NCBI RefSeq assembly: GCF_001570585.1 | Contig: NZ_BBXF01000001.1 | Coordinates: 613,691 to 677,690, forward strand | Origin: Herbidospora daliensis | Lineage (GTDB): Bacteria > Actinomycetota > Actinomycetes > Streptosporangiales > Streptosporangiaceae | Reading direction: 5' to 3' | Length of the DNA: 64,000 nucleotides | Shown: positions 2,315 through 53,501 of the stretch, one piece after another | How the letters are laid out: each line of letters starts with the position of its first letter | Position numbering within the stretch: the stretch's first letter is position 1 | Program-made: the position numbers and the translations under genes | The notes under the pieces: model-generated | The model's database searches: none | Seen by the model: the letters and a program-made list of their open reading frames with translations, nothing else | Told to the model about the DNA's origin: nothing

Positions 2315-2719
2315 ATGGCCGACCAGATCGTGATCCGCGCGCCCAAGGAGATCGTGGTCAAGGTGGTGGACGACGTCACGGTCGCCGACCCGCAGATCGG
2401 GCAGACCGGCACGTTCGACGACGAGATCTACGACGAGGACGGCACCCTGCTGGGCACCTCCCACGGCTCGTTCCGCATCGAGTACGTGCGCCCCGGCGAC
2501 GGCGGCCTGATGACCTACTACACCGAGGACATCACGCTGACCGACGGCACCATCCACGCCGAGGGCTGGGCCGACTTCAACGACGTGCGCACCAGCGAGT
2601 GGGTCTACTACCCGGCCACCGGCACCGGCGGCAGGTACGAGGGCCTCACCGGGTTCCGCACCTGGCGCATGACGGGCGTGCGGGCCTCGGCCGAGGCGCG
2701 CATCCTGCTCGCCGGCTGA
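2315..2719 (+). CDS. abyU: AbyU-like spirotetronate cyclase (Diels-Alderase), beta-barrel
   Basis: A 134-aa protein with an upstream GAGAGG ribosome site. The sequence closely resembles my memory of AbyU, the abyssomicin spirotetronate cyclase, a small eight-stranded antiparallel barrel that catalyses the intramolecular [4+2] between the triene and the exocyclic methylene of the tetronate. Shared stretches include KVVDDV, FRIEYVRP, HAEGWADFNDVRTS and WRMTGVR. The AbyU active-site residues I recall (Glu19, Phe41, Tyr76, Tyr106, Arg122, Trp124, Met126) fall, with a constant offset of seven, on Glu12, Phe34, Tyr69, Tyr99, Arg115, Trp117 and Met119; all are conserved. There is no signal peptide, so it is cytoplasmic. 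It lies 4 nt before the tetronate cassette. The alternative is a non-catalytic allene-oxide-cyclase-like barrel, unlikely given the conserved pocket. Confidence 0.9.
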   Translation: MADQIVIRAPKEIVVKVVDDVTVADPQIGQTGTFDDEIYDEDGTLLGTSHGSFRIEYVRPGDGGLMTYYTEDITLTDGTIHAEGWADFNDVRTSEWVYYPATGTGGRYEGLTGFRTWRMTGVRASAEARILLAG

Positions 2720-2723
2720 GCCG

Positions 2724-3746
2724 ATGCACATCCTCTCGGCCGCCTCGGCGCTGCCCGGCCCGCCCGTCGACAACGCCGCGCTGGCCCGCCGCTTCGGCAT
2801 GGACGCGTTGTGGGAGCAGTGGGTGGCGGCGTTCATCGGCACCGACGCCCGCCACCTCGCGCTCGACCTGGAGTCGGGGAAGGTCACCACGACCCTGGCC
2901 GACCTGGCCGCCGACGCCGGGGCCCGCGCCCTGGCGGCGGCGGGCGTGACGGCGGGCGAGGTGGACGCGGTCGTCCTGGGCACCGCGACCCCCGACCGGC
3001 TGATGCCCGCCACCGTCAACGTGGTCGCCGACCGGCTCGGCATCGACCAGGTGCGCACCTTCCAGCTGCAGTCGGGCTGCTCGGGGGCCGTGCAGGCCCT
3101 CGACGTGGCCCGGCAGCTGCTGCTCGCCGGGGAGACCCGCACGGTGCTGGTGCTCGGCGGCGACGTCATCGCGCGCTTCTACGACGTGACCCGCGACCTG
3201 ACCAGGGCGGCCCCGGCCGAGCTGGTCAACTACGTGCTGTTCGGCGACGCGGCGGGCGCGGCCGTGGTGTCGGCGGACGCCCGGCCCGGGTCGGCGCGGG
3301 TGCGGGCGCTGTTCACCCGCCTGGTCGGCCTGGGCCGGGAACCCGGCGCGGTGCTGGAGTGGTTCGGCCCCGCCGACCGCGACGACGACCGCCCGGCCGC
3401 GACCGAGGACTACAAGGCCATCGAGAAGCACGTGCCCGAGATGACCGAGGAGGTGCTGCTCGAACTGCTGCGCACGGTGGGCTGGACCGACCGCGACGTC
3501 GACCTGGTGCTGCCGCCGCAGCTCTCGGGCCGGATGACCCGGCTCATCACCGACCGGCTGGCGCTGCCCGCCGCCCGCGAGGTCTCCGTCGTCGGCCACG
3601 CCGGGAACTGCGGCAACGCCATCGTCTTCCTCCAGCTGGAGCGGGCGCTGGCGGCGTTGTCGCCCGGCGAGCGGGCGATCGGGGTGTCGATCGAGTCGAG
3701 CAAGTGGATCAAGGCCGGGTTCGCCCTGGAAGGGGCGGCGGCGTGA
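2724..3746 (+). CDS. abyA1: FabH-like (KASIII) tetronate-forming synthase
   Basis: A 340-aa thiolase-fold protein of the KASIII type. The catalytic cysteine is Cys119 in QSGCSGAVQAL. The C-terminal glycine loop with the conserved Asn is at about residues 294-298 (GNCGN). The region that in housekeeping FabH carries the catalytic His (PHQAN) reads PPQLSG (264-269), so the usual His is Pro. In tetronate pathways (AbyA1/AgnD1-type proteins) this enzyme joins glyceryl-ACP to the PKS-bound beta-keto thioester with C-C and C-O bond formation, releasing the tetronate. That fits the absence of a thioesterase in the last PKS module. The start is 4 nt after the stop of the AbyU-like gene and the stop overlaps the next start (GTGA), so it is translationally coupled. 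Confidence 0.88.
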   Translation: MHILSAASALPGPPVDNAALARRFGMDALWEQWVAAFIGTDARHLALDLESGKVTTTLADLAADAGARALAAAGVTAGEVDAVVLGTATPDRLMPATVNVVADRLGIDQVRTFQLQSGCSGAVQALDVARQLLLAGETRTVLVLGGDVIARFYDVTRDLTRAAPAELVNYVLFGDAAGAAVVSADARPGSARVRALFTRLVGLGREPGAVLEWFGPADRDDDRPAATEDYKAIEKHVPEMTEEVLLELLRTVGWTDRDVDLVLPPQLSGRMTRLITDRLALPAAREVSVVGHAGNCGNAIVFLQLERALAALSPGERAIGVSIESSKWIKAGFALEGAAA

Positions 3747-5587: not shown

Positions 5588-5593
5588 CGCCCC

Positions 5594-5821
5594 ATGATCT
5601 CCGTCGAGGAGTACCTCGTGCTGCTGCGCGACGAACTGGCCCTCCCGGTCACCGAGGACGACCTCGGCCGGTCGCTCGACACGGTCGACGCGTGGGACTC
5701 GGTCCACCTGCTCACCCTCTGCACGCTGCTGGAACGCCAGACGGGCCGGCCGTTGCCGTTCGCCCGGGTGCTGGAGGCCCCCAGCCTGGCGGCGGTCTAC
5801 GAACTGGCGGTCGCGTCGTGA
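5594..5821 (+). CDS. abyA3: Free-standing acyl carrier protein (glyceryl-ACP)
   Basis: A 75-aa carrier protein. The phosphopantetheine Ser is in AWDSVHLL (about residue 36), followed by a typical helix-loop-helix ending LAAVYELA. The ribosome site GGAGG overlaps the end of the FkbH gene, and the ACP stop overlaps the next gene's start (GTGA). The position directly after the FkbH gene matches the tetronate cassette, in which this ACP carries the glyceryl unit used by the FabH-like synthase. Another 322-aa frame covers this stretch (5584-6552) and is rejected as the ACP: its N-terminal third is Arg/Pro/Gly-rich shadow sequence before it joins the downstream acyltransferase frame. Confidence 0.92.
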   Translation: MISVEEYLVLLRDELALPVTEDDLGRSLDTVDAWDSVHLLTLCTLLERQTGRPLPFARVLEAPSLAAVYELAVAS

Positions 5822-6552
5822 CCGGCGTCGCGCCCTATCGGGAACGGCGGCACACGCTGTTCTTCCTGGAGGCGATCCGCGACTTCTCCCCCGTCTTCCT
5901 CGACACCGAGGTCGACATGACCGCCGTGCTGGCGCACCGCGCCGTCCACGGCCACGCGGTCACCGCCTACGTGCTGCACGCCGCCGGGCGGGTGCTGGCC
6001 AAGCACCCGGAGGCCAACGCGGCGATCCAGGGGCGGTTCCGGCCGAAAGTGGCCCGCTACCCGTTCGTCAGCGGCAAGGTGACGCTCGACCGCACGCTCA
6101 ACGGGCGGCGGGTGGTGCTCGGCACGGTGGTGCCGAACCTCCACGAGGCCGCCCTGTCCGACGTCCACGCCCATCTGGCGCGGGTGCGCCAGGGCGACCC
6201 GGAGAAGCTGAAGGACTTCGAGGGGGTGCGGCGGCTGCACCGCGCGCCGTGGGCGCTGGGCCGCCGCCGGTTCCGCAGGGCCGCCCGGTCGCTCGACCTG
6301 CGGCCGCACCTGACCGGCACCTTCGCGGTGACCTCGCTCGGCCACCGGGCGGTCGACTCCTTCCACTCGGTCGGCGGCACCACCACCACGTTCGGCGTCG
6401 GCCGGATCGCCGACCGGGTCGTGGTGCGCGACGGCGTGCCCGCCGTCGCGCCCGTGATGCGGCTCAGCCTCGCGTTCGACCACCGGGTGATCGACGGGGC
6501 GGAGGCCGCCGACGTGCTGACCGAGGTGAAAGAGGCCCTGGAGAACCTATGA
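5818..6552 (+). CDS. abyA4: 2-oxoacid-dehydrogenase-type acyltransferase (tetronate O-acetyltransferase)
   Basis: A 244-aa protein starting at GTG 5818 (GTGA overlap with the ACP stop). It is only the catalytic domain of a dihydrolipoamide acyltransferase: no lipoyl or peripheral-subunit-binding domain. The CAT-fold catalytic motif FDHRVIDGAEAA is at residues ~221-232. In the agglomerin/abyssomicin tetronate pathways (AgnD4/AbyA4) such a protein acetylates the primary hydroxyl of the tetronate's hydroxymethyl group, preparing it for elimination. I prefer GTG 5818 to the longer upstream frame because it gives the coupled overlap and the upstream part reads as another gene's shadow. The stop overlaps the next ATG (ATGA). 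Confidence 0.88.
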   Translation: MTGVAPYRERRHTLFFLEAIRDFSPVFLDTEVDMTAVLAHRAVHGHAVTAYVLHAAGRVLAKHPEANAAIQGRFRPKVARYPFVSGKVTLDRTLNGRRVVLGTVVPNLHEAALSDVHAHLARVRQGDPEKLKDFEGVRRLHRAPWALGRRRFRRAARSLDLRPHLTGTFAVTSLGHRAVDSFHSVGGTTTTFGVGRIADRVVVRDGVPAVAPVMRLSLAFDHRVIDGAEAADVLTEVKEALENL

Positions 6553-7592
6553 CCGACCTGGACGAGCTGAAGAACTACGTCGTCGCGCACGCCCGCTCGC
6601 AGGGCCTGCCGCCCGAGCACTCGGCGGCGATCCTGGCCCGCATCCACGACGACGATTCGTGGGTGCGCGAGTGGAGCGCCGAGGGCGACCGGATGGCCGC
6701 CGCCGACCGCCTGCTGGAGGCCAACGCCCACTACATCATGGCCCGCTTCCCCTACCTCGACGGCCCGGCGCGGCAGGAGGCCGCCGCCCGCAGCCGGGCC
6801 GTCTTCGACCGCTGGCGGGCCGGCTTCCCGCAGATCAGGCCGCTGGAGGGCCCGGCCCCCGGCTGGACCGTCGGCCTGGACGCCGCCGAGCCCCGGCCGC
6901 TGCTGGTGCTGACCGGCGGCATCATCTCGGTCAAGGAGCAGTGGGCGGCGGTGCTGCCGCAGCTCGACGCGCTCGGCTTCGCCGGGATCGTCACCGAGAT
7001 GCCGCAGGTCGGCGAGAACCCGGTGCCCTACGACGCCGACGCCTGGCGCTTCTTCCCCGCCCTGCTCGACGCGGTCGACGGCCGCGCCGACACCGCCAGG
7101 ACCTACCTGCTGGCGCTGAGCTTCAGCGGCCACCTGGCGCTGCGCGCCGCCGGGCACGACGACCGGATCAGGGGCGTGGTGGGCGCGGGCGCGCCGCTGC
7201 GCCACTTCTTCACCGACGAGACCTGGCAGGCGAGGGTGCCGGGCGTCACCACCGAGACGCTGGCCCACCTGACCGGGGCCGGCCGCGACAAGGTCTACCC
7301 GCTGATCCGCGACTGGGCGCTGACCCCGGAGGAGCTGTCGGCGGTGCGGGTCCCGGTCGCCCACGTGACGAGCCTGCGCGACGAGATCATCCCGCCCGCC
7401 GACGCCGCCCTGCTGCGCGAGCGGGTGCGCGGGGTGCGGGTGCTGGAGCACGACGACGTGCACGGCGCGCCGTCGTCGTTCGCGCAGACCCGGCTCTGGA
7501 CGCTGCTGTCGGTGCTGCGCATCCACGGCGGCTTCGCGCCCCAGCGGGTGGCCCTCACGAAGGAGTTCTCGAAGCTCCGGTACGCCTCATGA
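6549..7592 (+). CDS. abyA5: Alpha/beta-hydrolase-fold eliminase (exocyclic methylene formation)
   Basis: A 347-aa protein with a helical N-terminal region (1-~115) and an alpha/beta-hydrolase core. The nucleophile elbow reads LALSFSGHLALR (about residues 189-200), with an acidic residue in SLRDEIIPP and a His in DDVHGAPSS. In agglomerin/abyssomicin-type pathways (AgnD5/AbyA5) this protein removes acetate from the acetylated tetronate to give the exocyclic C=C that becomes the dienophile. Its start overlaps the acyltransferase stop (ATGA). Its last codons overlap the end of the convergent TetR gene by a few bases, so the two transcription units meet tail to tail without a spacer. Confidence 0.87.
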   Translation: MTDLDELKNYVVAHARSQGLPPEHSAAILARIHDDDSWVREWSAEGDRMAAADRLLEANAHYIMARFPYLDGPARQEAAARSRAVFDRWRAGFPQIRPLEGPAPGWTVGLDAAEPRPLLVLTGGIISVKEQWAAVLPQLDALGFAGIVTEMPQVGENPVPYDADAWRFFPALLDAVDGRADTARTYLLALSFSGHLALRAAGHDDRIRGVVGAGAPLRHFFTDETWQARVPGVTTETLAHLTGAGRDKVYPLIRDWALTPEELSAVRVPVAHVTSLRDEIIPPADAALLRERVRGVRVLEHDDVHGAPSSFAQTRLWTLLSVLRIHGGFAPQRVALTKEFSKLRYAS

Positions 7593-8228
7593 CCCGAACG
7601 CGCGCAGGAACGTGTCGACCCCGGCGACGGCCACCTTCTCGGCCTCGCGGGGGTCGAGCGGCCGGGAGCCGAACGTGCTGAGCGTCGGGAGCTCCTCGTA
7701 GACCAGGGCGATGAACTGGTTGGCCGCCCTGATCGGGTCGTCGATGCGGAGGTGGCCGGCGTTGGCCAGCCGGGCCAGCCGCCCGGCCAGCGCCTCGATG
7801 AACTGGTCGGGGCCGCTCGCCCTGACCTGGTCGAACAGGTCGGGGAAACGCACCGCCTCGGCGTAGAGGAGACGGCGGACGGCCTGCGACTGCTCGTCGG
7901 TGTAGCAGGCCACCAGCTTGCCCGCGACGTCTTCAAGGCCGGGGCGCAGCCCGTCGGCCGCGCCGGGGAACGACTCCAGGACCTCCATCGTCTTGCCGTT
8001 GGCCCGCGCCGCGGTCTCGGTCATGACGTGGCGGAACAGGTTCTCCTTCGAACCGAGGTGGTTGTAGATGGTCGGCTTGGCCACCCCCGCCTCGGCGGCG
8101 ATCAGGTCGAGGCTCGCCTGCGCGTAGCCGACGCGGGCGAACACCCGTAGCGCGGCCTCCACGATGGCCCGGCGTTTGTCCAGCCGCCCTCGGTCGGAGG
8201 TCGATTTCTCGGTGTCGCCAACGCTCAT
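7587..8228 (-). CDS. TetR/AcrR-family transcriptional repressor
   Basis: A 213-aa protein with a typical N-terminal DNA-binding domain: KRRAIVEAALRVFARVGY, then a helix-turn-helix (AAEAGVAKPTIYNHLGSKE, about residues 44-62). The C-terminal half is a divergent ligand-binding domain. It is divergent from the MFS exporter, with a perfect 6-bp inverted repeat in the 79-bp gap, the classic layout for a regulator that represses its exporter (and itself) until an effector such as the product binds. It is probably the counterpart of AbyC. It is the only transcriptional regulator I find in or next to the cluster; the LuxR and SARP regulators I recall from aby are absent from the window. Confidence 0.9.
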   Translation of the reverse strand: MSVGDTEKSTSDRGRLDKRRAIVEAALRVFARVGYAQASLDLIAAEAGVAKPTIYNHLGSKENLFRHVMTETAARANGKTMEVLESFPGAADGLRPGLEDVAGKLVACYTDEQSQAVRRLLYAEAVRFPDLFDQVRASGPDQFIEALAGRLARLANAGHLRIDDPIRAANQFIALVYEELPTLSTFGSRPLDPREAEKVAVAGVDTFLRAFGS

Positions 8229-8255
8229 TTCGCCATGCTACCGTCCCAGGCAGGT

Positions 8256-8277: not shown

Positions 8278-8307
8278 TCACTGTCTCCCCGGTTCAAAGG
8301 AGTTGTC

Positions 8308-9738
8308 ATGTCAGGCACGGTCCGGCTCGACCGCGCGCTGCTCACGCTGATCGGCGTGATGGTGCTCGGCGGGATGATGTCCTACCTCGACGCGACGATC
8401 GTCAACGTCGGGATCAGCACGCTGACCGCCGAGTTCGAGGCGACCCTGGCCACGATCGAGTGGGTGACCACCGGCTACCTGCTCGCGGTCGCGCTGGCGA
8501 TCCCGCTGGCCGGGTGGGCGACGGTGCGCTTCGGCGCCAAGCGCATGTGGCTGCTCGGCCTGACCGTGTTCCTGGCCGGGTCGACGCTCTCGGCCTTCGC
8601 CTGGAACGCCGAGAGCCTCATCGTGTTCCGGATCCTCCAGGGCCTCGGCGGCGGCATGGTCGACCCGATCATGATGACCGTCGTGGCGGGCGCGGCCGGT
8701 CCGGCCCGCATCGCCCGCGTGATGGGGCTCATCTCGATCCCGATCACCCTCGGCCCGGTCGTCGGCCCGATCGTCGGCGGCCTGATCCTCGACAACCTCA
8801 GCTGGCAGTGGATGTTCCTGGTCAACATCCCCTTCGCGGTCGCCGCGATCGTGCTGGCCGTGGTCGTGCTGCCGGCCGACGGGCCCGGGGCCGACGCGCC
8901 GCTCGACTGGATCGGCGTGTTCACCCTGTCGCCCGGCTTCGCCGCGCTCGTCTTCGCGTTGTCGCGCGCCGGGGCCGAGGGCTTCGGCAGCACGTCGGTG
9001 GTGATCGGCCTGGTCGTGGGCCTGGCGCTGTTCGCCGCCTACATCGTGCACGCCCTGCGTACCCGCGGCACGCCGCTGCTCGACCTGCGGCTGTTCCGCA
9101 GCAGGGGCTTCAGCGCCAGCGTGACCACCATGTTCCTCATCGGCGGCGGCCTGTTCTCGCTGCTGTTCCTGCTGCCGCTCTACTACCAGGAGGTGCGCGG
9201 CGAGTCGGTGCTGGCCTCGGGCCTGCTGCTGGCCCCGCTCGGGCTCGGCACGCTCGTCGGCATGCCGGTCGCGGGCAACCTGGCCGACAAGCTCGGCGCG
9301 CGGCGGCTGGTGCCGGTCGGCGCGCTGCTCATCGGGCTGGGCGCGCTGGTGTTCACCGGCTCCGACGCGGGCACCTCGCAGCTGCTGCTGACCGGCGCGC
9401 AGCTCGCCGCCGGGTTCGGCCTCGGGCTGGTCGGCGCGCCGACGATGGGGTCGGTCTACCGGACGGTGCCCGGCGACGCGGTGGCCGGGGCGACCGGCGC
9501 GGTCTTCATCCTCAACCAGATCGGCGCCTCGCTCGGCATCGCCGTCGTCGCGCTCATCCTCCAGGGCGGCGGCGCGCACACCGCCCCCACGCCCACGACC
9601 TTCGCCAACGCCTTCTGGTGGCCGGTGGCCGCCGCAGCGGTGGTCTTCGCGGCCGGGCTGCTGCTCCCCGGCAGGCCCGAGGCCGCCCCCGCCGAGCCCG
9701 TCGCCAAACCGGCCCCCTCCGAAGGAGCCCTGTCATGA
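8308..9738 (+). CDS. abyD: MFS drug exporter, DHA2 (14-TMS) family
   Basis: A 476-aa integral membrane protein with about 14 hydrophobic segments. Family signatures include LDATIVNVG in TM1, the motif A loop [13 protein letters not shown], and motif C-like [19 protein letters not shown] in TM5. DHA2 proteins export hydrophobic drugs by proton antiport, so this is the likely self-resistance/export protein for the spirotetronate. I chose ATG 8308 rather than the upstream in-frame ATG (8164), because AAAGGAG lies 6-12 nt before it and the extra N-terminus would run through the repressor gene and operator. The stop overlaps the monooxygenase start (ATGA). Confidence 0.92.
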
Positions 9739-10742
9739 CCCTGCCCTTATCGGTCCTCGACGTCGTCCCGGTCTTCGAGGGCGGCTCGGCCACCCAGGCC
9801 CTGAACGACACCGTCGCCTTCGCCGCCGAGGCAGAGAAGCTGGGCTACCTGCGCTACTGGGTGGCCGAGCACCACAACACCACCAGCCTGGCCACCTCCG
9901 CCCCGGCCGTGCTGGCCGGGCGGCTCGCGGCGGCGACCACGACCCTGCGGGTGGGGTCGGGCGGGGTGCTGCTGCCCAACCACGCCCCGCTCGTGGTGGC
10001 CGAGCAGTTCGGCACGCTGGAGGCCCTCCATCCCGGCCGGATCGACCTCGGGCTCGGCCGGGCCCCCGGCACCGACCCGCGCACCGCCCGCGCGCTGCGC
10101 CGCTCCCCCGAGGGCGCGGCCGACTTCGCCGGGGAGATCGGCGAGCTGCGCGGCTACTTCGCGCCCGCCGACCCGTCGACCGGCATCGTCGCGGTCCCGG
10201 CCGCCGACGCGCGGCCCGACCTGTGGGTGCTCGGGTCGAGCCCCGGCAGCGGCGCGCTCGCCGGGTCGCTGGGGCTGCCGTACGCGTACGCGCACCAGAT
10301 CAACCCGCGCGACACGGCACAGGCGCTGGCGGCCTACCGCGACGCGTTCCGGCCCTCGGCCGACCTCGACCGGCCGCGCACCCTGATCGCGGCGCTGGTC
10401 ACCGTGGCCCCCACCGACGACGAGGCCCTCATCGCGGCCTCCTCCTACCTGCTCGGCAAGGTGCTGATGCGCACCTCGCCCCACTTCGACGTGTTCCCGG
10501 CCGGGGCGCGGGCGGCCGCGTACCGGTGGTCGCCGGCCGAGCGGGAGTTCGTGCGGGCCCTGGTCGAGCCGCAGCTCATCGGGAGCGTCGAGACGGTGGC
10601 CGGCAAGCTCGACCGGCTGGTCGGGGAGACCGGCGCCGACGAGCTGATGGCGCTGACCGTGGTGCCGTCGCAGGACGACCGGCTGCGGTCGTTCCGGCTG
10701 CTGGCCGAGGCCGCGTCGATCGTGGTTTCAGCCCCGCTTTAG
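9735..10742 (+). CDS. Luciferase-like (LLM-class) flavin monooxygenase
   Basis: A 335-aa TIM-barrel protein of the bacterial luciferase-like family: [13 protein letters not shown] at the N-terminus, [13 protein letters not shown] (beta2 region), [42 protein letters not shown] core (about residues 74-115), and [10 protein letters not shown]. It should use reduced FMN from an unlinked reductase. The abyssomicin cluster carries a monooxygenase (AbyE) at the equivalent place beside the exporter, so an oxidative tailoring role is likely. The substrate cannot be read from the sequence; an F420-dependent reductase of the same fold is the alternative. The start overlaps the MFS stop (ATGA) and an AAGGAG lies just before it. 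Confidence 0.82.
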
Positions 10743-12426: not shown

Positions 12427-13361
12427 GGGGTGTGCTGACCCGGCTGGTGAGCGCGGCCCTCGTCGTGTGGGCCGCGGCCACCTGCGCCTTCCTGGTTCTC
12501 CAGCTCATCCCGGGCGACCCGGTCTACGCCGTCGTCGGCTCCGACGCGCTGGTCTCCGAGGAGCAGCACGAGCGGATCCGCGCCGAATACGGCCTCGACC
12601 AGCCGCTCGTGGTGCAGTACCTGAGCTACGTCGCCCGGCTGGCGACCTTCCGGTTCGGCGACTCCTACCAGCTCCAGCAGCCGGTGGCGACGGTGCTGGC
12701 CGACCAGCTGTGGCCGACCGTGCAGCTCGCGCTGGCGGCCACCGTGCTGGCCCCGATCCTGGCGGTGCTGGTGGCGGTGGCCACCTCGGGGCGGCGGCAC
12801 TGGCCGCGCCGGGTGGCGGCGGCGGTGGAGCTGGTGGTGGTGTCGACGCCGTCGTTCTGGCTCGGCATCATGCTGCTGACGATCTTCTCGTTCCGGCTGG
12901 GCTGGTTGCCGGTGTCGGAGACCGGCGGCGTCGCGTCGCTGGTGCTGCCCACGATCACCCTGGCGCTGCCGATCGCGGCCGTGCTGACCCAGGTGATGCG
13001 CGAGGGCCTGCTCGCCGCGCTCGACCAGCCGTTCGCGGTGACCGCGCGGGCGCGCGGCGTGCCCGAGACGGCGGTGCGCTACCGGCACGCCCTGCGCCAC
13101 TCGGCGCTGCCCGCGCTGACCATGGCGGGCTGGTTCACCGGCACCCTGCTCGGCGGCGCGGTGATCGTGGAGAACGTGTTCGCCCGGCCCGGCATCGGGC
13201 GCGTCACCCTCCAGGCGGTCGGCGACCGCGACCTGCCGGTCGTGCAGGGCGTGGTGGCGCTGTCGGCGGTGGTGTTCGTCGCGGTCAGCGTGCTGGTCGA
13301 CGTCCTGTACGCCGTCGTCGACCCCCGCCTGCGCCGGAGGACGGGGGTGCAGGCGATATGA
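12423..13361 (+). CDS. ABC transporter permease, DppB-like
   Basis: A 312-aa inner-membrane protein starting at GTG 12423, overlapping the binding-protein stop. Features typical of DppB-type permeases: an N-terminal TM followed by LIPGDPVYAVVG, an extracytoplasmic domain, and a cluster of TMs carrying the EAA coupling loop (ARGVPETAVRYRHALRHS). The C-terminus contains AVVDPRLRRR. It pairs with the DppC-like permease whose ATG overlaps its stop (ATGA at 13358). A longer upstream frame is rejected because it runs through the binding-protein gene as Arg/Gly/Pro-rich shadow sequence. Confidence 0.9.
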   Translation: MRGVLTRLVSAALVVWAAATCAFLVLQLIPGDPVYAVVGSDALVSEEQHERIRAEYGLDQPLVVQYLSYVARLATFRFGDSYQLQQPVATVLADQLWPTVQLALAATVLAPILAVLVAVATSGRRHWPRRVAAAVELVVVSTPSFWLGIMLLTIFSFRLGWLPVSETGGVASLVLPTITLALPIAAVLTQVMREGLLAALDQPFAVTARARGVPETAVRYRHALRHSALPALTMAGWFTGTLLGGAVIVENVFARPGIGRVTLQAVGDRDLPVVQGVVALSAVVFVAVSVLVDVLYAVVDPRLRRRTGVQAI

Positions 13362-18106: not shown

Positions 18107-18298
18107 ATGCGAATCAGCGCCGATCAGGGACGCTGCCTGGGCGCGGGACAGTGCGTGCTGTCCGCGCCCGACCACTTCGACCAGTCCGAGCTCGGGCTGG
18201 TCGACGTGCTCGACCCGGAGGTGCCGGAAGGGGACGAGCAGCGTTTCCGGGACATCCTCGACCTCTGCCCGTCACAGGCCCTGTCACTGGAGGCGTGA
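18107..18298 (+). CDS. 3Fe-4S ferredoxin
   Basis: A 63-aa ferredoxin: MRISADQGRCLGAGQCVLS gives two of the cluster cysteines in CxxxxxC spacing, and the last is in DLCPSQAL near the C-terminus. This is the short actinobacterial type that partners P450s. An AACAGGAG ribosome site lies upstream. It follows the P450 and precedes the esterase in one operon. No ferredoxin reductase is encoded in the window, so reduction must come from elsewhere. Confidence 0.93.
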   Translation: MRISADQGRCLGAGQCVLSAPDHFDQSELGLVDVLDPEVPEGDEQRFRDILDLCPSQALSLEA

Positions 18299-18300
18299 CC

Positions 18301-19312: not shown

Positions 19313-37921
<18,609 letters not shown>

Positions 37922-43900: not shown

Positions 43901-46900
43901 GATCCGGGGCACCGCGATCAACCAGGACGGCGCCTCGAACGGCCTGACCGCGCCCAACGGCCCGTCGCAGCAGGCGGTCATCCGCGCGGCCCTCACCGAC
44001 GCGGGCCTGTCCGCCTCCGACGTGGACGCCATCGAGGCGCACGGCACGGGCACCCGCCTCGGCGACCCCATCGAGGCGCAGGCCCTGCTCGCGACCTATG
44101 GTCAGGACCGCGACGAACCGGCCTGGCTGGGCTCGCTGAAGTCGAACATCGGCCACACCCAGGCGGCGGCCGGGGTCGGCGGGGTGATCAAAATGGTCGA
44201 GGCCCTCCGGAACGAAGTGCTGCCCCGAACCCTGCACGTGGACGAGCCGACCCCGCACGTCGACTGGGCCGCGGGCGACGTGCGCCTTCTCGCGGAGGCC
44301 CGCCCGTGGGCTCGGGAGGCCGGGCGGGTCCGGCGCGCGGGCGTCTCGGGCTTCGGCATGAGCGGCACCAACGCCCACGTCATCATCGAGGAGGCCCCCG
44401 ACGCCGCCGCGCCGCGCTCCGAACCCGCCTCGCCTTCCCGGAGCGAAGCTTCCGAGGCCGCCGCCGACGCGCCGGTGCTGCTTTCGGCGCACAACGGTCA
44501 GGCGTTGCGGGCGCAGGCCCGGCGGTTGCGCGACCACCTGTCCGCCCGCCCGGCCCTGCTGCCCTCAGACCTGTCCCGCACCCTCGCCACCGGCCGCGCC
44601 GCGCTCGCCCACCGGGCCGCCGTCGTCGCGGGAGACCGCGAGACGCTGCTCGCGGCGCTCGACGCCCTCGCGGACGACCGCCCCGACCCGCAGCTGGTTC
44701 GAGGGCAGGTCAGCCCGCTGGGCAAGACGGTCTTCGTGTTCCCCGGTCAGGGGTCCCAGTGGGACGGCATGGCCAGAGACCTCCTCGCCACCTCCCCCGT
44801 CTTCGCCGACCACCTCCGGGCCGCCGCCGAGGCGATCGAGAGACACGCGGGCTGGAACCTGATCGACGTCCTCGACGGCCCGCCCGTCGACCGGGTCGAC
44901 ATCATCCAACCGGCCCTGTTCGCCGTCATGACCAGCCTGGCCCGCCTGTGGGAACACCACGGCGTCCACCCGGACGCCGTCATCGGCCACTCCCAGGGCG
45001 AGATCGCCGCCGCCCACATCGCGGGCGCGCTCACCCTCGACGACGCCGCGAAAATCGTCACCCTCCGCTCGAAGGCCCTACTCGCCCTCGCCGGAACGGG
45101 CGGGATGGCCTCCGTCTCACGAAGCGCCGCCGACGTGGCCGCCCGCCTCACCCGATACGACGACCTGCACATCGCCGCCCACAACAGCCCCAACGCCACG
45201 GTCATCGCCGGCGACCCCGCCCAGCTCGACCACCTGCTCGGCACTCTCGAGAACGCCCGCAGGATCCCCGTCGACTACGCCTCCCACAGCCCCCACGTCC
45301 ACCGCCTCCGCGACGAACTCCTCGCCCTGCTCGACGGCATCCGGCCGCAACCCCCGGCCGTCCCCCTCTACTCCACCGTCACCGCGGACCTCCCCGCCCT
45401 CACCCCCGAGTACTGGTTCGACAACCTCGCCAACCCGGTCCGCTTCCACCAGACCCTCACGAAGCTCCTGGACGACGGCCACACCACGTTCGTCGAAGCG
45501 AGCCCCCACCCGGTGCTGACGACGGCCGTCCAGGACACCCTCGAACACCCGTCGCTGCTGGTCACCGGCACCCTGCGCCGGCACAAGGGCACCCTGCGCC
45601 AGTTCCGGCTGAACCTGGCCGCCCTCCACGCCGACGGCCACCCGGTCGACTGGCGGCTGCCGGAGCAGGGCGTCACCGACCTGCCCACGTATGCCTTCCA
45701 GCGCGAGCGCTACTGGCTGACCGGCCCGCCGGTGGGCGGCGTCGACGCGGCCGAGCACCCGTTCCTGACCGCGGTGACCGTGCTCGCCGAGACGGGGGCG
45801 CTGGTCGCGACCGGCAGCGTCTCCCGCGACGCGCACGGCTGGCTCGCCGACCACGCCGTGCGCGGCACGGCCCTGCTTCCGGCGACGGCCCTGCTCGAAC
45901 TCGCCCTCCAGGCCGGGCACCTGTCGGGCGCCGCGTCCCGCCTCGACGAACTCACCCTGGAGGCCCCCCTCCACCTGCCCGACCGGGGAACCGTCCGGCT
46001 CCAGGCGGAGGTGAGCGCCCCCGACGAGTCGGGCCACCGCCGGGTGACCGTGCACTCCCGCCGCGCGGGCGACCTGGAGTGGACCCGCCACGCCGCCGGC
46101 ACCCTGACCCCGCCCGGCGAACCCCCCGCGGCGACGGCCTGGCCCCCGCCGGACGCCGTCCCCCTCCCGGTCGGCGACCTCTACGACCGGCTGGCCGACC
46201 TCGGCTACGAGTACGGCCCCGCCTTCCGCAACCTCACCGCCGCCTGGCGCGAGGGCGACACCGTGCACGCGGAGGTCCGCCTGCCGGAGGGCCACGAGGA
46301 CGACGCCGCCCGGTTCGCCCTCCACCCCGCCCTCTTCGACGCGGCCCTGCACGCCATGGCGCTCGGCGGTTTCCTCGGCGAAGGGGTCCGGCTCCCGTTC
46401 ACCTGGTCGGGCGTCGACCTGTTCGCCACCGGCGCCACCGCCCTGCGCGCCACCCTGACCCCCGCCGGCGACGACACGGTCGCCGTCACCCTCACCGACC
46501 CGACCGGCGCCCCGGTCGCCCGGGTCGAGTCCCTGACCCTCCGCGCCGCCCCTGCGACGCAGACCGCCGAACCCAGTTCCCTGTACGACCTGACCTGGAC
46601 CGACCTCCCCGCGATCCCGGGGGAGGATCCGGCCGCGCGCCTTCCCGCCGACGTGACCGTGATCGAGTGGCCCGCCTCCGCCGCCGACGGGGACGTCCCG
46701 CAAGCCGTGGCCGCCAACGTACGATCACTGATCGACCGGCTGACCGCCTGGCTGGCCGAGAACCACGGCCCCGCCTCCCGTCTGGCGATCCTGACCAGGA
46801 ACGCCGTCGCCGTGTCACCGGGCGACCGCCTCGACCTCGCCTCGGCCCCCCTGTGGGGAGTTGCGCGGTCGGCCGCCACCGAGAACCCGGGCCGCGTCGT

Positions 46901-49253
46901 CGTCGTCGACCTCGACGACGCCTCGGCCGACGCCCTCCCGGCGGCCCTGGCGAGCGGCGAGCCCCAGCTGGCCCTCCGCGACGGCCGCGCCCTGGTCCCC
47001 CGGCTGGCCCGGACCCCCCGTCACCCCGCCGTCGACCCACCGGCAGGCACGTGGCGGCTGACCACCCCGGGCGGCTCCCCCGACGACCTGCGCGCCGCCC
47101 CCTTCCCCGAGGCCGAGGCTCCCCTGGCTCCCCACCAGGTCAGGCTGCACGTCCGCGCGGCGGGGCTGAACTTCCGCGACGTCCTGACCGCGCTCGGCAT
47201 GGTCCCCTCGCCCACCCCCCTGGGCGCCGAAACGGCGGGCGTCGTGGCCGAGGTCGGCGCGGCGGTCTCGGGGCTGAGCGTCGGGGACCGGGTCTTCGGC
47301 CTGGTGCCGGGCGCGGTGGGGCCGGTCGCCGTCGCCGACCACCGGCTGCTCGCCCCGATCCCCGGCGGCTGGTCGTTCGCCGAGGCCGCGAGCGTGCCGG
47401 CCGTATTCACCACCGCCTACCACGCCCTCGTCACGCTGGCCCGCGTCCAGGCGGGAGAACGGGTGCTGGTCCACGCCGCCGCCGGCGGGGTGGGGCTGGC
47501 GGCGGTGCAGCTGGCGCGGCACCTGGGCGCGGAGGTGTACGCCACCGCCAGCCCGGCCAAGTGGCCCGCGCTGCGCGCCCTGGGGATCCCGCCCGAGCGC
47601 ATCGCCTCCTCCCGCACCGACGCGTTCGCGGCCGCGTTCAGGCAGGTCGACGTCGTGCTGAACTCCCTGACCGGGGACCTGCTCGACGCCTCGCTCGGCC
47701 TGCTGCCGCCGGGCGGCCGGTTCGTCGAGATGGGCATCGCCGACCCCCGCGACCCCGACGGCGTCGAGTACCTGCCGTTCGAACTGCTCGACATGCCGGT
47801 CGAGGAGGTCGCGGCCGCCTTCCACGGAGTGCTGGCGCTGTTCGCGGAGGGGGCGCTGCGGCCGTCGCGGGTCACCACCTGGGACGTGCGGCAGGCCCCG
47901 GCCGCGTTCCGGCACTTCGCCCAGGCGGCCCACGTGGGCAAGCTGGTGCTGACGCTGCCGTCCGTACACGAAGGGACCGTGCTCGTCACCGGCGGGACCG
48001 GCACGATCGGGGCGGCGCTGGCCCGGCACCTGGTGGCCGCGCACGGCGTGCGGCATCTGCTGCTGACGAGCCGGCGCGGCCCGGACGCGCCCGGCGCGGC
48101 CGAGCTGGCCGGGGAACTGGCCGCGGCGGGGGCGGAGGTGCGGGTCGTGGCCTGCGACGCCGCCGACCGGGCGGCGCTGGCCGCGCTGCTGGCCGACGTC
48201 CCCGGTGACCGGCCGCTCACGGCCGTCTTCCACACGGCCGGAGTGCTCGACGACGGCGTGCTCGCCTCGCTGACGCCGGAGAAGGTCGCGGCGGCGCTGC
48301 GGCCCAAGGTCGACGCCGCCTGGAACCTGCACGAGCTGACCGGCGACCTCGACGCGTTCGTGTTGTTCTCCTCGGCGTCGGGGCTGCTCGGCGGCGCGGG
48401 TCAGGCCAACTACGCCGCCGCCAACGTCTTCCTGGACGCCCTCGCCGCGCACCGCCGCGAGCGCGGGCTGCCCGCGACCTCGCTCGCGTGGGGCCTGTGG
48501 CGGGAGGCGAGCGGCATGACCGGGCACCTGGGCGCGGCCGACCTGGCCCGCATCGCCCGGGGCGGGCTCGCGCCGATGCCGGTGGAGGAGGGGCTGGCGC
48601 TGTTCGACGCCGCCCTGCGGGCCGACCGGCCGCTGCTGGTGCCGGCGGTGCTCGACGAGGGCGCGCTGCGGGCGCGGGCCGAGGCGGGTGAGGCGCCGCC
48701 GGTCCTGCGGGGGCTGGTGCGTGCTCGTGTACGCCGGGCCGCCCGGCACGCGCCGGTCTCGCCCGCCGGCCTGGCCGACCGGCTGGCCGCGCTGCCGGGG
48801 CCCGACCGGGCGCAGGCGCTGCTGACCCTCGTCAGGGAGCAGGTGGCGGCGGTGCTCGGGCACTCCGGCGCAGACGGGGTCGCCGCCGACCAGGCGTTCA
48901 AGGAGATCGGCTTCGACTCGCTGACCTCGGTCGAGCTGCGCAACCGGGTGGCGGCGGCGACCGGGCTGCGGCTGCCGACCACGCTGGCCTTCGACTTCCC
49001 GACCCCGGCCGCGCTGGCCGTCCACCTGCGCGGACTGCTCGCCCCCGACGACACGGCGGCCGAACTCGACCGGCTGCTGTCGTCGGTGACCGTCGACGGA
49101 CCCGATTTCGCCACGATCAGAGACCGGCTGCGCGCGGCGTTGTGGCGCTGGGAGGAGGGCTCCCGCCACGGCGAGGAGACCGGCGACGACCTCGCGGCGG
49201 CCACCGACGAGGAGCTCTTCCGCACGCTCGACGAGGAACTCGACCCGCTGTGA
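37929..49253 (+). CDS. abyB2: Type I PKS: modules 4-5
   Basis: A 3774-aa synthase with an N-terminal coiled-coil docking segment ([20 protein letters not shown], residues 5-24). Module 4 is KS-AT-DH*-KR*-ACP with dead reductive domains, and module 5 is KS-AT-DH-ER-KR-ACP. Both ATs are methylmalonyl-type. It therefore adds one methyl-branched beta-keto unit and one fully reduced methyl-branched unit, as in abyssomicin (C7 ketone with C6 methyl; C5 methylene with C4 methyl). The C-terminal [13 protein letters not shown] helix is almost the same as the tail of the previous synthase, so docking specificity must lie elsewhere. GAGGACAGG lies 11 nt before the ATG, which is 7 nt after the preceding stop. 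Confidence 0.95.
38028..43075 (+). other. PKS module 4: KS-AT(methylmalonyl)-inactive DH-inactive KR-ACP
   Basis: KS from ~34, Cys206. AT ~559-850: Ser647 in GHSQG and YASH at 741-744, both methylmalonyl markers. DH: His938 kept ([10 protein letters not shown]), but the Asp is Thr1146 (LLTAALQ), so it should not dehydrate. KR: the nucleotide loop is SGSGDLAE (from 1389), LDD is missing and the catalytic Tyr is Arg1525 (QGARAATG), so it is dead. ACP Ser1675 intact. Net result: an unreduced alpha-methyl-beta-keto unit. Confidence 0.9.
43119..49045 (+). other. PKS module 5: KS-AT(methylmalonyl)-DH-ER-KR-ACP
   Basis: KS from ~1731, Cys1903 in TACSASL. AT: Ser2355 (GHSQG), YASH from 2450: methylmalonyl, near-copy of AT4. 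DH: His2642 ([10 protein letters not shown]) and Asp2804 (LFDAALH). ER ~3040-3338 with [11 protein letters not shown] and the NADPH loop [10 protein letters not shown] at ~3183. [10 protein letters not shown] from 3354, LDD at 3440-3442, Tyr3495. ACP Ser3664. The only fully reducing module; gives a saturated methyl-branched unit. Confidence 0.93.
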
Positions 49254-49267
49254 CCCCTGGAGACGAC

Positions 49268-52200
49268 ATGACCAGCAACGAGGACCGGCTGCGCGAGTAC
49301 CTCAAGCGGACCACCGCCGACCTGCGCCAGGCCCGGCGGCGCATCCGCGAACTGGAGGACCGGCCGCACGAGCCCATCGCGATCGTCGCCGCCGCCTGCC
49401 GCCTGCCCGGCGGCGCCGACAGCCCCGAGGCGTTGTGGCGGCTGCTCGACGCGGGGATCGACGCCGTCGGCGGCTTCCCCGCCGACCGGGGGTGGGACCT
49501 CGACGCGCTGTACGACCCCGACCCGGACCACACCGGGACGACGTACACGAAGGAAGGCGGTTTCCTGTACGACGCCGCCGGCTTCGACGCGGCCTTCTTC
49601 GGCATGGGCCCGCGCGAGGCGACCGCCACCGATCCGCAGCAGCGGCTGCTGCTGGAGACGTCGTGGGAGGCCGTGGAGCGGGCCGGGATCGCGCCGGGAT
49701 CGCTGCGCGGCAGCCGGACGGGCGTGTTCGCCGGGGTCGTGTCCCAGGCGTACGTGCCGCCGCCCGACCGGGTCCCGGACGGCTTCGAGGGCCACCTGAT
49801 GACCGGCAACGCGACCAGCGTCGCCACCGGCCGGATCGCCTACCACCTGGGGCTGGAGGGACCGGCGGTGACCGTCGACACGGCGTGCTCGTCGTCGCTG
49901 GTGGCGCTGCACCTGGCGGCCCAGTCGCTGCGGCGCGGCGAGTGCGACCTGGCGCTGGCGGGCGGGGTCACGGTGATGGCGACGCCGGTGCTGCTGGTCG
50001 AGTTCAGCCGCCAGCGCGGGCTGGCCCCCGACGCGCGGTGCAAGGCGTTCGCCGCCGCCGCCGACGGCACCGGCTTCGCCGAGGGCGTCGGCCTGCTCGT
50101 GCTGGAACGCCTCTCGGACGCCCGGCGCAACGGCCGGACCGTGCTGGCCGTGCTGCGCGGCTCGGCGGTCAACCAGGACGGCGCGTCGAACGGCCTGACC
50201 GCGCCCAACGGCCCGACGCAGGAGCGGGTGATCAGGGCCGCGCTCGCCGACGCCCGCCTCGCCCCCGAGCAGGTCGACGCCGTGGAGGCCCACGGGACGG
50301 GCACCCGTCTGGGCGACCCGATCGAGGCGGGGGCGATCCTGGCGACGTACGGGCGGAACCGGGACGAACCCCTGTGGCTGGGGTCGGTGAAGTCGAACCT
50401 CGGCCACACCCAGGCCGCCGCCGGGGTGGCCGGCGTCATCAAGATCATCGAGGCGCTCCGGCACGAGACGCTGCCCCGCACCCTGCACGTGGACGAGCCG
50501 ACCCCGCACGTCGACTGGGAGAGCGGCGCGGTCCGCCTCCTCACCGAACCGGTGCCGTGGCCCCGGGGCGGGCACCCGCGCCGGGCGGGGGTCTCGTCGT
50601 TCGGCATCAGCGGCACCAACGCCCACGTCATCATCGAGGAGGCGCCCTCGACGGAAGGCGTCGAACCCGGAGCCCCCAGCCGTGAGGACCCGGGCGCCAA
50701 GGGAACGGCGGCCACCGGTTCTCGCCATGATCCGGCGGTGGACCCGGGCGCCCCCGCCGCGCCGTGGCCCTTGTCGGGCCGCACCGAGACCGCCCTCCGT
50801 GCCCAGGCGGCCCGCCTGCTCGACCGCCTGACCACCCACCCGCACCTGGACGACGCCCGGGTCGGCCGCACCCTGGCGCTGGGCCGCACCCCGCTGAAGC
50901 ACCGGGCGGTCGTGCTGCCCGGCGACCGCGACCAGCGCCTGCGCGCCCTGGCCGACCTCGCGGCGGGCCGCACGTCGCGGCACGTGGTCCGGGCGACGGC
51001 CGCCGAACGGACCGGCGCGGCCTACCTGTTCACCGGCCAGGGCAGCCAGCGCCCCGGCATGGGCCGCGGCCTCTACGAGACGTGGCCGGTCTTCGCCGAG
51101 GCGCTGGACGAGGTCGCCGCCGGCTTCACGCCCCACCTGGACCACCCGTTGAAGGACCTGCTGTTCGGCGACGCGGCCGTCCTCGATCGGACCGAATACG
51201 CCCAGCCCGCCCTGTTCGGCCTGGAGGTCGCCCTGTTCCGGCTGCTGGCGCGGCTCGCCCCGCCGCCCGCGCGGGTGGCCGGGCACTCGCTCGGCGGGCT
51301 GGCCGCCGCGCACGCCGCCGGGGTGCTCTCGCTCGACGACGCCTGCGCCCTGGTCGCGGCGCGGGCGAGGCTGATGCAGGCCCAGCCCGAAGGCGGCGCG
51401 ATGACGGCGATCGAGGCCACGGAGGCCGAGGTCTCCGAGGCGCTGCACGGCTATGCGGGCCGGGTCGGCCTGGCCGCCGTCAACGGCCCCACGGCGGTGG
51501 TCGTCTCCGGTGACGCCGACGCGGTCACCGAGGTCGCCGCCACCTTCACCGCGCGCGGCCACCGCACCAGCAGGCTGCGGGTCGGCCACGCCTTCCACTC
51601 ACCGCACATGGACGGGGCCCTTGAGCCCTTCCGCGCGGCGGCCGCCAGGGTGACGTTCCGCGAACCGGTCATCCCTCTCGTGTCGGAGGTGACCGGCCGC
51701 GAGGCGACGTACAGAGAACTGGAAGACCCGGACTACTGGGTGCGCCACCTGCGGTCCACGGTCCGGTTCGGCGACGTGGTCGCCACCCTGCGCGAAGCCG
51801 GGGTGCGCACGTTCGTCGAGGTCGGCCCCGACGCCGTGCTCACCCCGATGGCGGCGCGGGCGCTGCCCGACGACGCGCTCGTGCTCCCGGCCCTGACGAA
51901 GGACCGGCCCGAGCCGGAGGCGGTGGCGGCGCTGGTCGCGCGGCTGCACGCGGCGGGCGGCGCGGTCGACTGGTCGGCCTGGCACGAGCCCGGCCCGCCC
52001 GCCGACCTGCCGACCTACCCGTTCGAACACGAGCACCACTGGTGGGGCTCGGCGGCCCGGACCGCCGGCCCGGAGGCGGGACCGGCCGAGACGACGCTGC
52101 TCGACCTGGTGCGGTCGCACGCCGCCGAGGTGCTCGGCCACGCCGCGCCCGACCGGATCGGCCCGGAGGACAATTTCCTGCACATCGGCTTCTCGTCGTT

Positions 52201-52327
52201 CAGCGCCCTGGAGGTGCGCAACCGGTTGTGCGAGGCGACGGGGCTGACCCTGCCGCCGGTGCTGCTGTACGACTACCCGACCCCCGCCGCCGTCGCGGGC
52301 TTCCTGGAGGAGCGGCTCACCACGTGA
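49268..52327 (+). CDS. abyB3: Type I PKS: module 6 (KS-AT-ACP, no thioesterase)
   Basis: A 1019-aa single-module synthase. The ATG at 49268 has GGAG 5 nt upstream and opens a coiled-coil docking segment ([20 protein letters not shown]). KS: Cys207 (TACSSSL). AT: Ser674 in GHSLGG, HAFH at 774-777: malonyl. ACP: the attachment motif reads GFSSF instead of GFDSL; Ser977 is kept but the preceding Asp is Ser976. There is no reductive domain and no thioesterase. The product is a beta-keto thioester, the substrate for the FabH-like tetronate synthase. The stop overlaps the convergent P450 gene by 11 bp. The longer frame from 49142 lies inside the previous gene and is rejected. Confidence 0.94.
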
Positions 52328-53501
52328 CCGGCAGCCGGTGGATTCCCTGCACCGACCCGCCCGGCTTGACCCCGAGCGCCTCGACGGGCTCGGCGAGGCG
52401 CAGGCCGGGCAGGCGGGTGACCAGCTCGCGCAGCCCGATCTCCAGTTCGGCGCGGGCCAGGTTCTGCCCGATGCACTGGTGGACGCCGTGCCCGAAGGCC
52501 AGGTGCCCGCGCGCGTCGCGGCCGAGGTCGAGCGTGTCGGGGTCGGCGTAGACGCGCCCGTCGCGGTTGGCGGCGGCGTTGGGCAGGTAGACGCCGTCGC
52601 CCGCGCGGATCGTCACCCCGCCGACCTCGATGTCGGCGGCGGCGACCCGCTGGAGCTCGTCGGCGACCGACAGGAAGCGCAGCAGTTCCTCGACGTGGTC
52701 CTTGGCCCGGTCGGGGTGCTCACGCAGCACGGCGAGCTGTTCGGGGTGCTCCAGCAGGGTCAGGATGCTCAGCGCCATCATGCTGGCCGTCGTCTCGTGC
52801 CCGGCGACCAGCAGGAACATCGAGATCGACGCGACCTCGGCCCGGGTCAGCCGCCCGGTCGCCAGCTGCTCCCTGAGCAGCGTGTCGACCACGCCCTCGC
52901 CGGGCTCGGCGAGCTTGCGTCCGATCAGCTCGTCGAAGTAGGCGGTCAGCGCCACGGCCGCGTCGGCGGCGTCCTGGGCGGTGCTGGTCGCCATCAGCAT
53001 CTTCCTGGTCTGCGCCTCGAAGAAGTCGTGGTCGGCGTACGGCACCCCGAGCAGTTCGCAGATCACGGTCGACGGCACGGCGAGCGTGAACTCGGGCACC
53101 AGGTCGGCGCCGGGCCCCTTCGCGAGCAGCGCGTCGATGCGCTCGGTGACGATGCGCAGGATCACCGGCCGCAGCTTCTTGAGCCCGTTGACGGTGAAGC
53201 TCGGCGCGAGCATGCGCCGCTGCACGTCGTGCTCGGGCGGGTCCATGCCAACAAGGGCGACCAGCCGGGAGGCGGCCATCCGGGGCACCAGCACCGGGAA
53301 GTCGGCCCGCGACCGGTCGGACGACAACCGGGGGTCGAGCAGGAGCGCCCGCGTCTCGGGGTGCCCGGTGATCACCCAGGCGACCCGGCCGTCGTACAGG
53401 CGCACGCGCGTGGCGACGCCGGACTCCCGCAGCCGCTCGTATCCGGCGGGCGGGTGGTAGGGGCAACCTCGGTTCATGGGGAAGTCGGGGATCTCGCTCA
53501 T
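52317..53501 (-). CDS. Cytochrome P450 monooxygenase (second)
   Basis: A 394-aa P450 closely related to the first P450 of the cluster: N-terminal [12 protein letters not shown] (RGCPFQPASGY there), [14 protein letters not shown]-helix [10 protein letters not shown]-helix EELLR, heme motif [15 protein letters not shown], and the C-terminus LPVTW. It is encoded opposite to the PKS genes and overlaps their end by 11 bp. Abyssomicin clusters carry two P450s (AbyV, AbyX), one an epoxidase acting on the cyclised product; I cannot say which this is. It has no ferredoxin of its own and may share the one at 18107. Its promoter must lie in the 196-bp gap to the ketopantoate-reductase-like gene. Confidence 0.92.

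What the first reader, a model, noticed from the sequence alone, without database searches (positions are those of the whole stretch)
2315..53501. Near-complete abyssomicin-type spirotetronate cluster with a C19-skeleton prediction
Seen: KSQ loading; three malonyl KR-DH modules; a methylmalonyl module with dead DH and KR; a methylmalonyl DH-ER-KR module; a non-reducing malonyl module without TE; a five-gene tetronate cassette; and an AbyU-like cyclase. Known: abyssomicin C needs exactly this (triene, C7 ketone, C4/C6 methyls, C3 beta-keto, glyceryl-derived tetronate, [4+2]). Inference: the core product equals the abyssomicin skeleton (14 + 2 + 3 carbons), with oxidation by two P450s and one flavin monooxygenase.
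Basis: partly seen in the sequence, partly recalled or inferred. Interest (0 to 1): 0.75.

Follow-up and report, generated by a model that had tools for sequence, protein, structure and literature searches.

The report
Herbidospora abyssomicin-type antibiotic gene cluster
This stretch of an actinobacterium's genome is a largely intact gene cluster for a small antibiotic of the abyssomicin family, of a layout already catalogued in 2020, with a few extra tailoring genes and a puzzling repeat-protein partner of its ring-closing enzyme that deserve a test.

Summary
The finding is real and its core reading is right. The window lies in a Herbidospora genome (genus level only). [quoted passage not shown] A C19 abyssomicin-C-type core follows; it is inferred, not measured. 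The layout equals 'type 1b' of Iglesias et al. 2020, who name Herbidospora among type 1 hosts. Corrections: the cluster starts left of the finding (abyK directly before abyU; two regulators outside the window); module 5 DH keeps His but has Asp to Thr; module 4 DH has an eroded second motif, so the enone is uncertain; the downstream P450 is AbyX-like, not a second AbyV; an O-acyltransferase and an esterase without aby counterparts suggest an acylated product or acylation cycle. Most novel open point: AbyK is predicted as a stand-alone Rhs/YD shell, lies upstream of AbyU in 21 of 24 loci, and shares one open frame with AbyU in two lineages.

The parts
1..2289 (+). abyK: YD/Rhs-repeat protein (836 aa; likely GTG start about 221 bases left of the window)
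   Evidence: RHS_repeat 8.1e-37; TIGR01643 1e-26; frame and start
2315..2719 (+). abyU: spirotetronate cyclase (Diels-Alderase), AOC-like barrel
   Evidence: AOC_like 1.3e-43; AbyU 5dyv 221.9 bits; Glu19, Tyr76, Arg122, Met126 of AbyU all kept
2724..3746 (+). abyA1: KAS III-like tetronate-forming enzyme
   Evidence: best PDB chain 5by7, 491 bits
3743..5587 (+). abyA2: FkbH-like glyceryl transferase/phosphatase
   Evidence: TIGR01686 1.1e-86
5594..5821 (+). abyA3: discrete ACP for the glyceryl unit
   Evidence: PP-binding 2.8e-4; position in the cassette
5818..6552 (+). abyA4: E2-type acyltransferase
   Evidence: 2-oxoacid_dh 2e-18
6546..7592 (+). abyA5: alpha/beta hydrolase-fold enzyme
   Evidence: AbyA5 4ywf 354 bits; tree
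7587..8228 (-). abyC: TetR regulator
8308..9738 (+). abyD: MFS exporter
9735..10742 (+). abyE: luciferase-like flavin monooxygenase
   Evidence: TIGR03558
10795..12426 (+). abyF1: solute-binding protein
12444..13361 (+). abyF2: permease
13355..14164 (+). abyF3: permease
14161..15750 (+). abyF4: double ATP-binding protein
15785..16915 (+). Acyl_transf_3 membrane O-acyltransferase; no aby counterpart
   Evidence: 1.1e-31; beside abyV in 7 of 11 genomes searched
16912..18093 (+). abyV orthologue, cytochrome P450 (11,12-epoxidation)
   Evidence: best of 93 PDB matches is AbyV 7qan, 503 bits (identity of 7QAN)
18107..18298 (+). ferredoxin directly behind abyV
   Evidence: Fer4_15 2.1e-7
18295..19161 (+). 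HSL-family esterase (Abhydrolase_3)
   Evidence: 6.8e-60; LipP1 7.5e-73, below its cut-off
19313..37921 (+). abyB1: KSQ-AT-ACP and three KS-AT(mal)-DH-KR-ACP modules
   Evidence: Pfam on its first 1996 residues
25259..25690 (+). low-complexity insertion (136 residues in rare alignment columns) in a DH loop of module 2; approximate limits
36053..36076 (+). eroded second DH motif (HPALLD) of module 4, Asp kept
37929..49253 (+). abyB2: module 5 (methylmalonyl, dead DH and KR) and module 6 (methylmalonyl, DH-ER-KR)
49250..52327 (+). abyB3: module 7, KS-AT(mal)-ACP, no TE
52317..53501 (-). AbyX-like cytochrome P450
   Evidence: 61-62% to the P450 at the abyX place of two Micromonospora, 51-52% to that at the abyV place; 7qan only tenth

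Best explanation
An aby-type (type I) abyssomicin cluster of layout 'type 1b'. KSQ makes an acetyl starter; modules 2-4 build a conjugated triene (C8-C13), module 5 leaves the C7 ketone and the C6 methyl, module 6 a saturated C4-methyl unit, module 7 the C3 beta-keto unit. A2/A3 supply glyceryl-ACP, A1 and its partners release the chain as a tetronate, A4/A5 acetylate and eliminate to the exo-methylene dienophile, AbyU closes the spiro-cyclohexene by [4+2] (15R as for AbyU), AbyV, perhaps fed by the adjacent ferredoxin, epoxidises C11-C12 and the tetronate enol opens the epoxide to the oxabicycle. Result: a C19 abyssomicin core. The acyltransferase and esterase then probably acylate and deacylate a hydroxyl (C11-OH is the candidate). 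Shown here: genes, domains, active-site residues, orthology. Inferred: every chemical step and the product.
For: Domain order and active-site residues match the published aby synthase, including two propionate-type ATs in modules 5 and 6 and the Asp-to-Thr change in DH5 (PMC3625739, passages). Cyclase 77% identical to AbyU, key residues kept; a Micromonospora gifhornensis locus whose AbyU segment is identical to the 5dyv segment gives an aby reference. A1, A5 and P450 best PDB matches are aby-family proteins (that 5by7 is AbyA1 is recalled). All 22 cluster genes of the window have matches in the same order in H. mongoliensis, Acrocarpospora catenulata, Streptomyces fragilis and Actinacidiphila epipremni. 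A5 tree. AbyU gives 15R, AbyV epoxidises the 11,12-alkene (PMC11318650, first part).
Against: DH4 is seven to nine residues short at its HPALLD motif and DH2 carries a long insertion, so the triene may not form fully in this strain. No abyT, abyZ or abyW counterpart was recognised among the 20 genes scanned; flavin reduction for AbyE must then come from elsewhere. The extra acyltransferase and esterase are unexplained by abyssomicin C. No expression or chemistry.
Confidence: 0.85

Rival explanations
1. Same cluster, but module 4 DH is inactive in this species, so the strain makes a 9-hydroxy, 8,9-dihydro abyssomicin without the enone (Michael acceptor). The diene C10-C13 and the [4+2] step would survive, and the carbon count stays 19.
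For: The window DH4 reads [12 protein letters not shown] where H. solisilvae reads [19 protein letters not shown]. sakaeratensis is partly changed (GFDPVLFDAVLHP), H. solisilvae and H. mongoliensis are intact.
Against: The first-motif His and the catalytic Asp are kept; KR4 is intact; an assembly error is not excluded, as no reads were seen.
Confidence: 0.3
2. An abm-type (type II, 15S) abyssomicin cluster.
For: Similar gene content and the same number of modules as abm.
Against: Module 2 AT is HAFH (malonyl), module 6 is YASH; abm has propionate in modules 2 and 5 and acetate in 6. The cyclase scores 220-222 bits to AbyU against 63-64 to AbmU.
Confidence: 0.04
3. A larger class II (decalin-bearing) spirotetronate such as the chlorothricin or kijanimicin type, only partly in the window.
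For: Shares the five-gene tetronate cassette.
Against: Only six extension modules, contiguous, ending in a TE-less module 7; B1-B3 find no match (E 1e-8) in the 18.7 kb left and 12.3 kb right of the window; no FAD-dependent cyclase recognised among the 20 genes scanned.
Confidence: 0.02
4. A decaying, silent cluster.
For: DH2 insertion and DH4 erosion are seen in this species.
Against: All large frames are open, with high third-position GC in those listed; six of seven genus genomes keep the cyclase at 96-100% identity, the window genome among them.
Confidence: 0.1

Closest known systems
aby cluster, atrop-abyssomicin C, Verrucosispora (Micromonospora) maris AB-18-032 (PMC3625739, passages)
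   Same: abyK, A1-A5, B1-B3 with the same module plan, C, D, E, F1-F4, V, X; AbyU
   Different: All non-PKS genes but one P450 lie upstream of the PKS; no counterpart of abyT, abyZ or abyW recognised; extra acyltransferase and esterase; DH5 His kept
abyssomicin BGC type 1b of Iglesias et al. 2020 (PMC7176366, sections 7, 10, 11 and passages)
   Same: All genes upstream of the PKS, one P450 downstream; Herbidospora is named among the hosts of types 1a and 1b together
   Different: They call the downstream P450 an extra copy of abyV; here it is closer to abyX
abm cluster, neoabyssomicin/abyssomicin 2, Streptomyces koyangensis (PMC5819245, section 11 part 1)
   Same: Cassette, seven modules, P450 with ferredoxin, four-part ABC importer
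   Different: Methyl positions (AT2 and AT5 propionate); AbmU only 63-64 bits to the window cyclase; abm-specific genes such as the aldo/keto reductase not recognised among the 20 genes scanned
Rhs/YD-shell proteins (RhsA 7q97, Tse5 8cp6, TcdB2-TccC3 4o9x)
   Same: The AbyK model is predicted to share the YD-shell fold
   Different: AbyK is encoded inside a biosynthetic cluster; its last 90 or so residues are predicted disordered

Membership tests
abyssomicin (aby, type I) BGC | KSQ plus six extension modules in the aby order with methylmalonyl at modules 5 and 6 only | tested here: met
abyssomicin (aby, type I) BGC | module 5 reductive domains inactive | tested here: met
   by sequence: KR Lys/Tyr lost, DH Asp to Thr
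abyssomicin (aby, type I) BGC | AbyU-type spirotetronate cyclase | tested here: met
abyssomicin (aby, type I) BGC | five-gene tetronate cassette closest to aby | tested here: met
   A5 tree (A5 only was treed)
abyssomicin (aby, type I) BGC | AbyV epoxidase | tested here: met
   by sequence; 62-63% to the abyV-place P450 of two Micromonospora
abyssomicin (aby, type I) BGC | working DH in modules 2, 3, 4 for the triene | tested here: inconclusive
   DH3 motifs intact; DH2 with loop insertion; DH4 second motif eroded
abyssomicin (aby, type I) BGC | C19 abyssomicin product with 15R centre | not testable with these tools
   needs LC-MS and NMR
type 1b layout (Iglesias 2020) | type 1a blocks all upstream of the PKS and one P450 downstream | tested here: met
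   gene map; definition; the downstream P450 is AbyX-like rather than AbyV-like
abm (type II) BGC | methylmalonyl AT in module 2, malonyl AT in module 6 | tested here: not met
   AT2 HAFH, AT6 YASH; abm plan
class II spirotetronate BGC | FAD-dependent decalin cyclase and longer PKS | tested here: not met
   none recognised among 20 genes scanned by Pfam; seven modules in all
Rhs/YD-shell family (AbyK) | YD repeats and closed beta shell | tested here: inconclusive
   repeats met; shell predicted only (pLDDT 77, pTM 0.80)

The most novel reading that the evidence does not exclude
AbyK is a dedicated Rhs-type protein shell for the Diels-Alderase: a YD-repeat cocoon, of the fold otherwise known for carrying toxins, re-used to house, fold or deliver AbyU (or its reactive tetronate substrate) in abyssomicin biosynthesis. 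Evidence: an AbyK-like gene lies upstream of abyU on the same strand in 21 of 24 loci; the gap is -8 to +103 bases in 18 of the 19 loci measured, the nineteenth being one open frame; AbyK and AbyU form one open frame in Streptomyces iconiensis and in a genome of another family, probably Frankiaceae; the AbyK C-terminal probe hit 5 of 394 class genomes, all five with an A5 homologue and four with an AbyU-type cyclase of 85% identity or more. Published deletion cut product to about 30% and complementation restored it (PMC3625739, passage). Against: two of 24 loci with 10 kb upstream held lack it, AbyU works in vitro without it, and the fused frames keep possible internal starts.
Probability: 0.25. 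Interest if true: 0.75.

Novelty: new member of a known kind. Interest (0 to 1): 0.35.

Why it matters
As a cluster it adds a well-resolved Herbidospora member to a catalogued family of antifolate antibiotics and says what it most likely makes. Three points go beyond that. (1) The acyltransferase and esterase suggest acylated abyssomicins or an acyl protect/deprotect step. (2) A ferredoxin sits directly behind abyV here and behind the abyV orthologue of M. gifhornensis, whereas the AbyV study stated that no native ferredoxin had been identified in the aby cluster (PMC10107801, passage). (3) The role of AbyK was called elusive in 2011; its link to AbyU and the predicted Rhs shell make it testable.

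Tried and rejected
Rejected: abm-type product (AT motifs); class II spirotetronate (no cyclase recognised, too few modules); panE at 53590 as part of the cluster (in H. mongoliensis it lies about 1.3 kb from the P450 at 74% identity, and no match was found in the other three clusters); a fixed acyltransferase-esterase pair (S. iconiensis has the acyltransferase without the esterase; esterase in 5 of 6 acyltransferase-bearing clusters read and in 0 of 4 without it, the two Micromonospora being read only in part). A second KSQ synthase of the same genome (C3:266.5-300 kb) was considered as a partner: PKS matches 46-54%; of the cassette only A2 was matched (35%, at about 302 kb, its FkbH-like part). 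Inconclusive: model of the S. iconiensis AbyK-AbyU frame; the shell is mostly confident, the linker (about 766-903) disordered and the cyclase part low (mean pLDDT 73, pTM 0.71), so inside or outside the shell is not told. The fused frames may still start AbyU internally: a purine-rich stretch precedes an ATG (L013) or a GTG (G473). A phylum-wide sample for the cyclase found only the window itself in 396 genomes; a class-wide one found 13 of 394. Literature: 'AbyU' with 'Rhs' listed only unrelated papers; 'abyssomicin' with 'acyltransferase' and 'O-acyl' listed 2 papers, neither opened; 'abyssomicin' with 'AbyK' gave 3 papers, with 'YD repeat' 2, with 'Herbidospora' 3. One A5 tree only; the other cassette genes were not treed. 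Some motif labels are wrong (loose regexes); two searches were used instead.
Full report
Place and host. The window is G000:C1:613691-677690. Six of seven genomes of its genus carry the cyclase at 96-100% identity, the window genome included; one lacks it. The genus is thus Herbidospora; the species is not told (may leave out the window's own record).

Observation. Gene map by third-position GC, ORFs and Pfam: abyK 3' part (to 2289), abyU 2315-2719, A1-A5 2724-7592, TetR 7587-8228(-), MFS 8308-9738, luciferase-like 9735-10742, Opp-type ABC 10795-15750, Acyl_transf_3 15785-16915, P450 16912-18093, ferredoxin 18107-18298, Abhydrolase_3 18295-19161, PKS B1-B3 19313-52327, P450 52317-53501(-). Left of the window lie a LuxR-type 909-aa regulator (C1:610499-613228, minus strand) and a SARP regulator (C1:608936-609793), near where aby has abyH and abyI (gene table of PMC3625739, passages).

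PKS. Loading KS has Gln; ATs are HAFH in loading and modules 2, 3, 4, 7 and YASH in 5 and 6; KRs of 2, 3, 4, 6 have LDD motifs and the Tyr/Asn motif; KR5 has lost the NADPH motif, Lys and Tyr; DH5 keeps His and has Asp to Thr; only module 6 has an ER; no TE. Published aby: propionate ATs in modules 5 and 6, DH5 His to Leu and Asp to Thr, KR5 Lys to Ile and Tyr to Val (PMC3625739, passages). abm differs: propionate in 2 and 5 (PMC5819245). The same module plan stands in H. mongoliensis, A. catenulata, S. fragilis and A. epipremni.

Anomalies. DH2 of the window has 136 residues in columns filled by fewer than 4 of 25 DH sequences; the other four clusters of that alignment have 2, 3, 19 and 51 there, and H. 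sakaeratensis, solisilvae and yilanensis have a short loop. DH4 is seven residues shorter than H. solisilvae and nine shorter than H. mongoliensis just before its Asp and lacks HPALL; H. sakaeratensis is partly eroded, the other two intact (counted by eye). By the module-to-carbon map (established PKS logic) DH4 makes C8=C9, the enone partner, so this decides the reactive group, not the carbon number.

Cyclase and cassette. Best PDB matches are three near-identical AbyU sequences (220-222 bits; 5dyv and 7pxo are named AbyU in PMC11268479; 5dyq and 8qfu by sequence), then 7dvi (123) and, further down, AbmU (63-64). A M. gifhornensis locus holds an AbyU segment identical to that of 5dyv. Glu19, Tyr76, Arg122 and Met126, named in PMC11268479 (passages), are kept. 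A5 best hit is AbyA5. A5 tree of 48 rows: the window lies among the AbyU-cluster rows; the node joining these with the two Micromonospora rows has 99/99 support and 26 rows, of which 5 came from the A5 search; one of these is identical to Frankia EI5c, two are in genomes that also carry AbyK, two (G673, G444) are in genomes with only distant cyclases. The AbyU-cluster rows are therefore not a strict clade (4 label changes).

P450s. The upstream P450 is the AbyV orthologue (7qan top of 93 PDB sequences; 62-63% to the abyV-place P450 of two Micromonospora against 54% to the abyX-place one). The downstream one is AbyX-like (61-62% against 51-52%; 7qan tenth). This refines the 'extra copy of abyV' of type 1b (PMC7176366, section 7). 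A ferredoxin gene follows the abyV orthologue here, in M. gifhornensis (L053:12089-12274 minus, Fer4_15 3.4e-12) and in M. wenchangensis.

Extra tailoring. The acyltransferase lies beside abyV in 7 of 11 genomes (Herbidospora, Acrocarpospora, Streptomyces, Actinacidiphila); the two Micromonospora have only 43-47% relatives elsewhere, Frankia EI5c and Parafrankia none. The esterase is in 5 of 6 acyltransferase-bearing clusters read and 0 of 4 others. Reading: O-acylation, perhaps reversible, of a product hydroxyl. This is inference; a search of the retrospective PMC8225091 for six acylation words hit only a reference title.

Papers seen: PMC7176366 (outline, sections 7, 10, 11, passages), PMC5819245 (outline, section 11 part 1), PMC3625739, PMC6100094, PMC11268479, PMC8225091 (passages), PMC10107801 (abstract, passages), PMC10946715 (part 1 of 4, passages), PMC11318650 (part 1 of 3), PMC11812412 (part 1 of 2).

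Verdict.

Noticed in passing
window 1-2289; L013 7313-10405; L113 1470-4601: AbyK (YD/Rhs repeat) upstream of AbyU in 21 of 24 loci, and in one open frame with it in two lineages; predicted Rhs shell.
   Followed up: partly
window 18107-18298; L053 12089-12274 (minus): Ferredoxin gene directly behind abyV here and in M. gifhornensis, a candidate for the native AbyV electron donor.
   Followed up: partly
window about 25259-25690: Low-complexity insertion with 18-base repeats in the DH of module 2, not seen in the four other Herbidospora species read.
   Followed up: partly
window 36053-36076: Second DH motif of module 4 eroded, partly so in H. sakaeratensis.
   Followed up: partly
window 15785-16915 and 18295-19161: Acyltransferase and esterase without aby counterparts, conserved at the same place in related clusters.
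   Followed up: partly
G000:C3:266517-299580 (L061, L062): A second KSQ-like modular PKS in the same genome, its start 73% identical in DNA to the first 1.2 kb of B1; of the cassette only a 35% match to A2 nearby.
   Followed up: partly
   Followed up: no
window 54682-58160: Downstream of panE: a short piece resembling the end of an FMN-dependent dehydrogenase (54889-55323) and two similar large, probably exported proteins on the minus strand (by eye).
   Followed up: no
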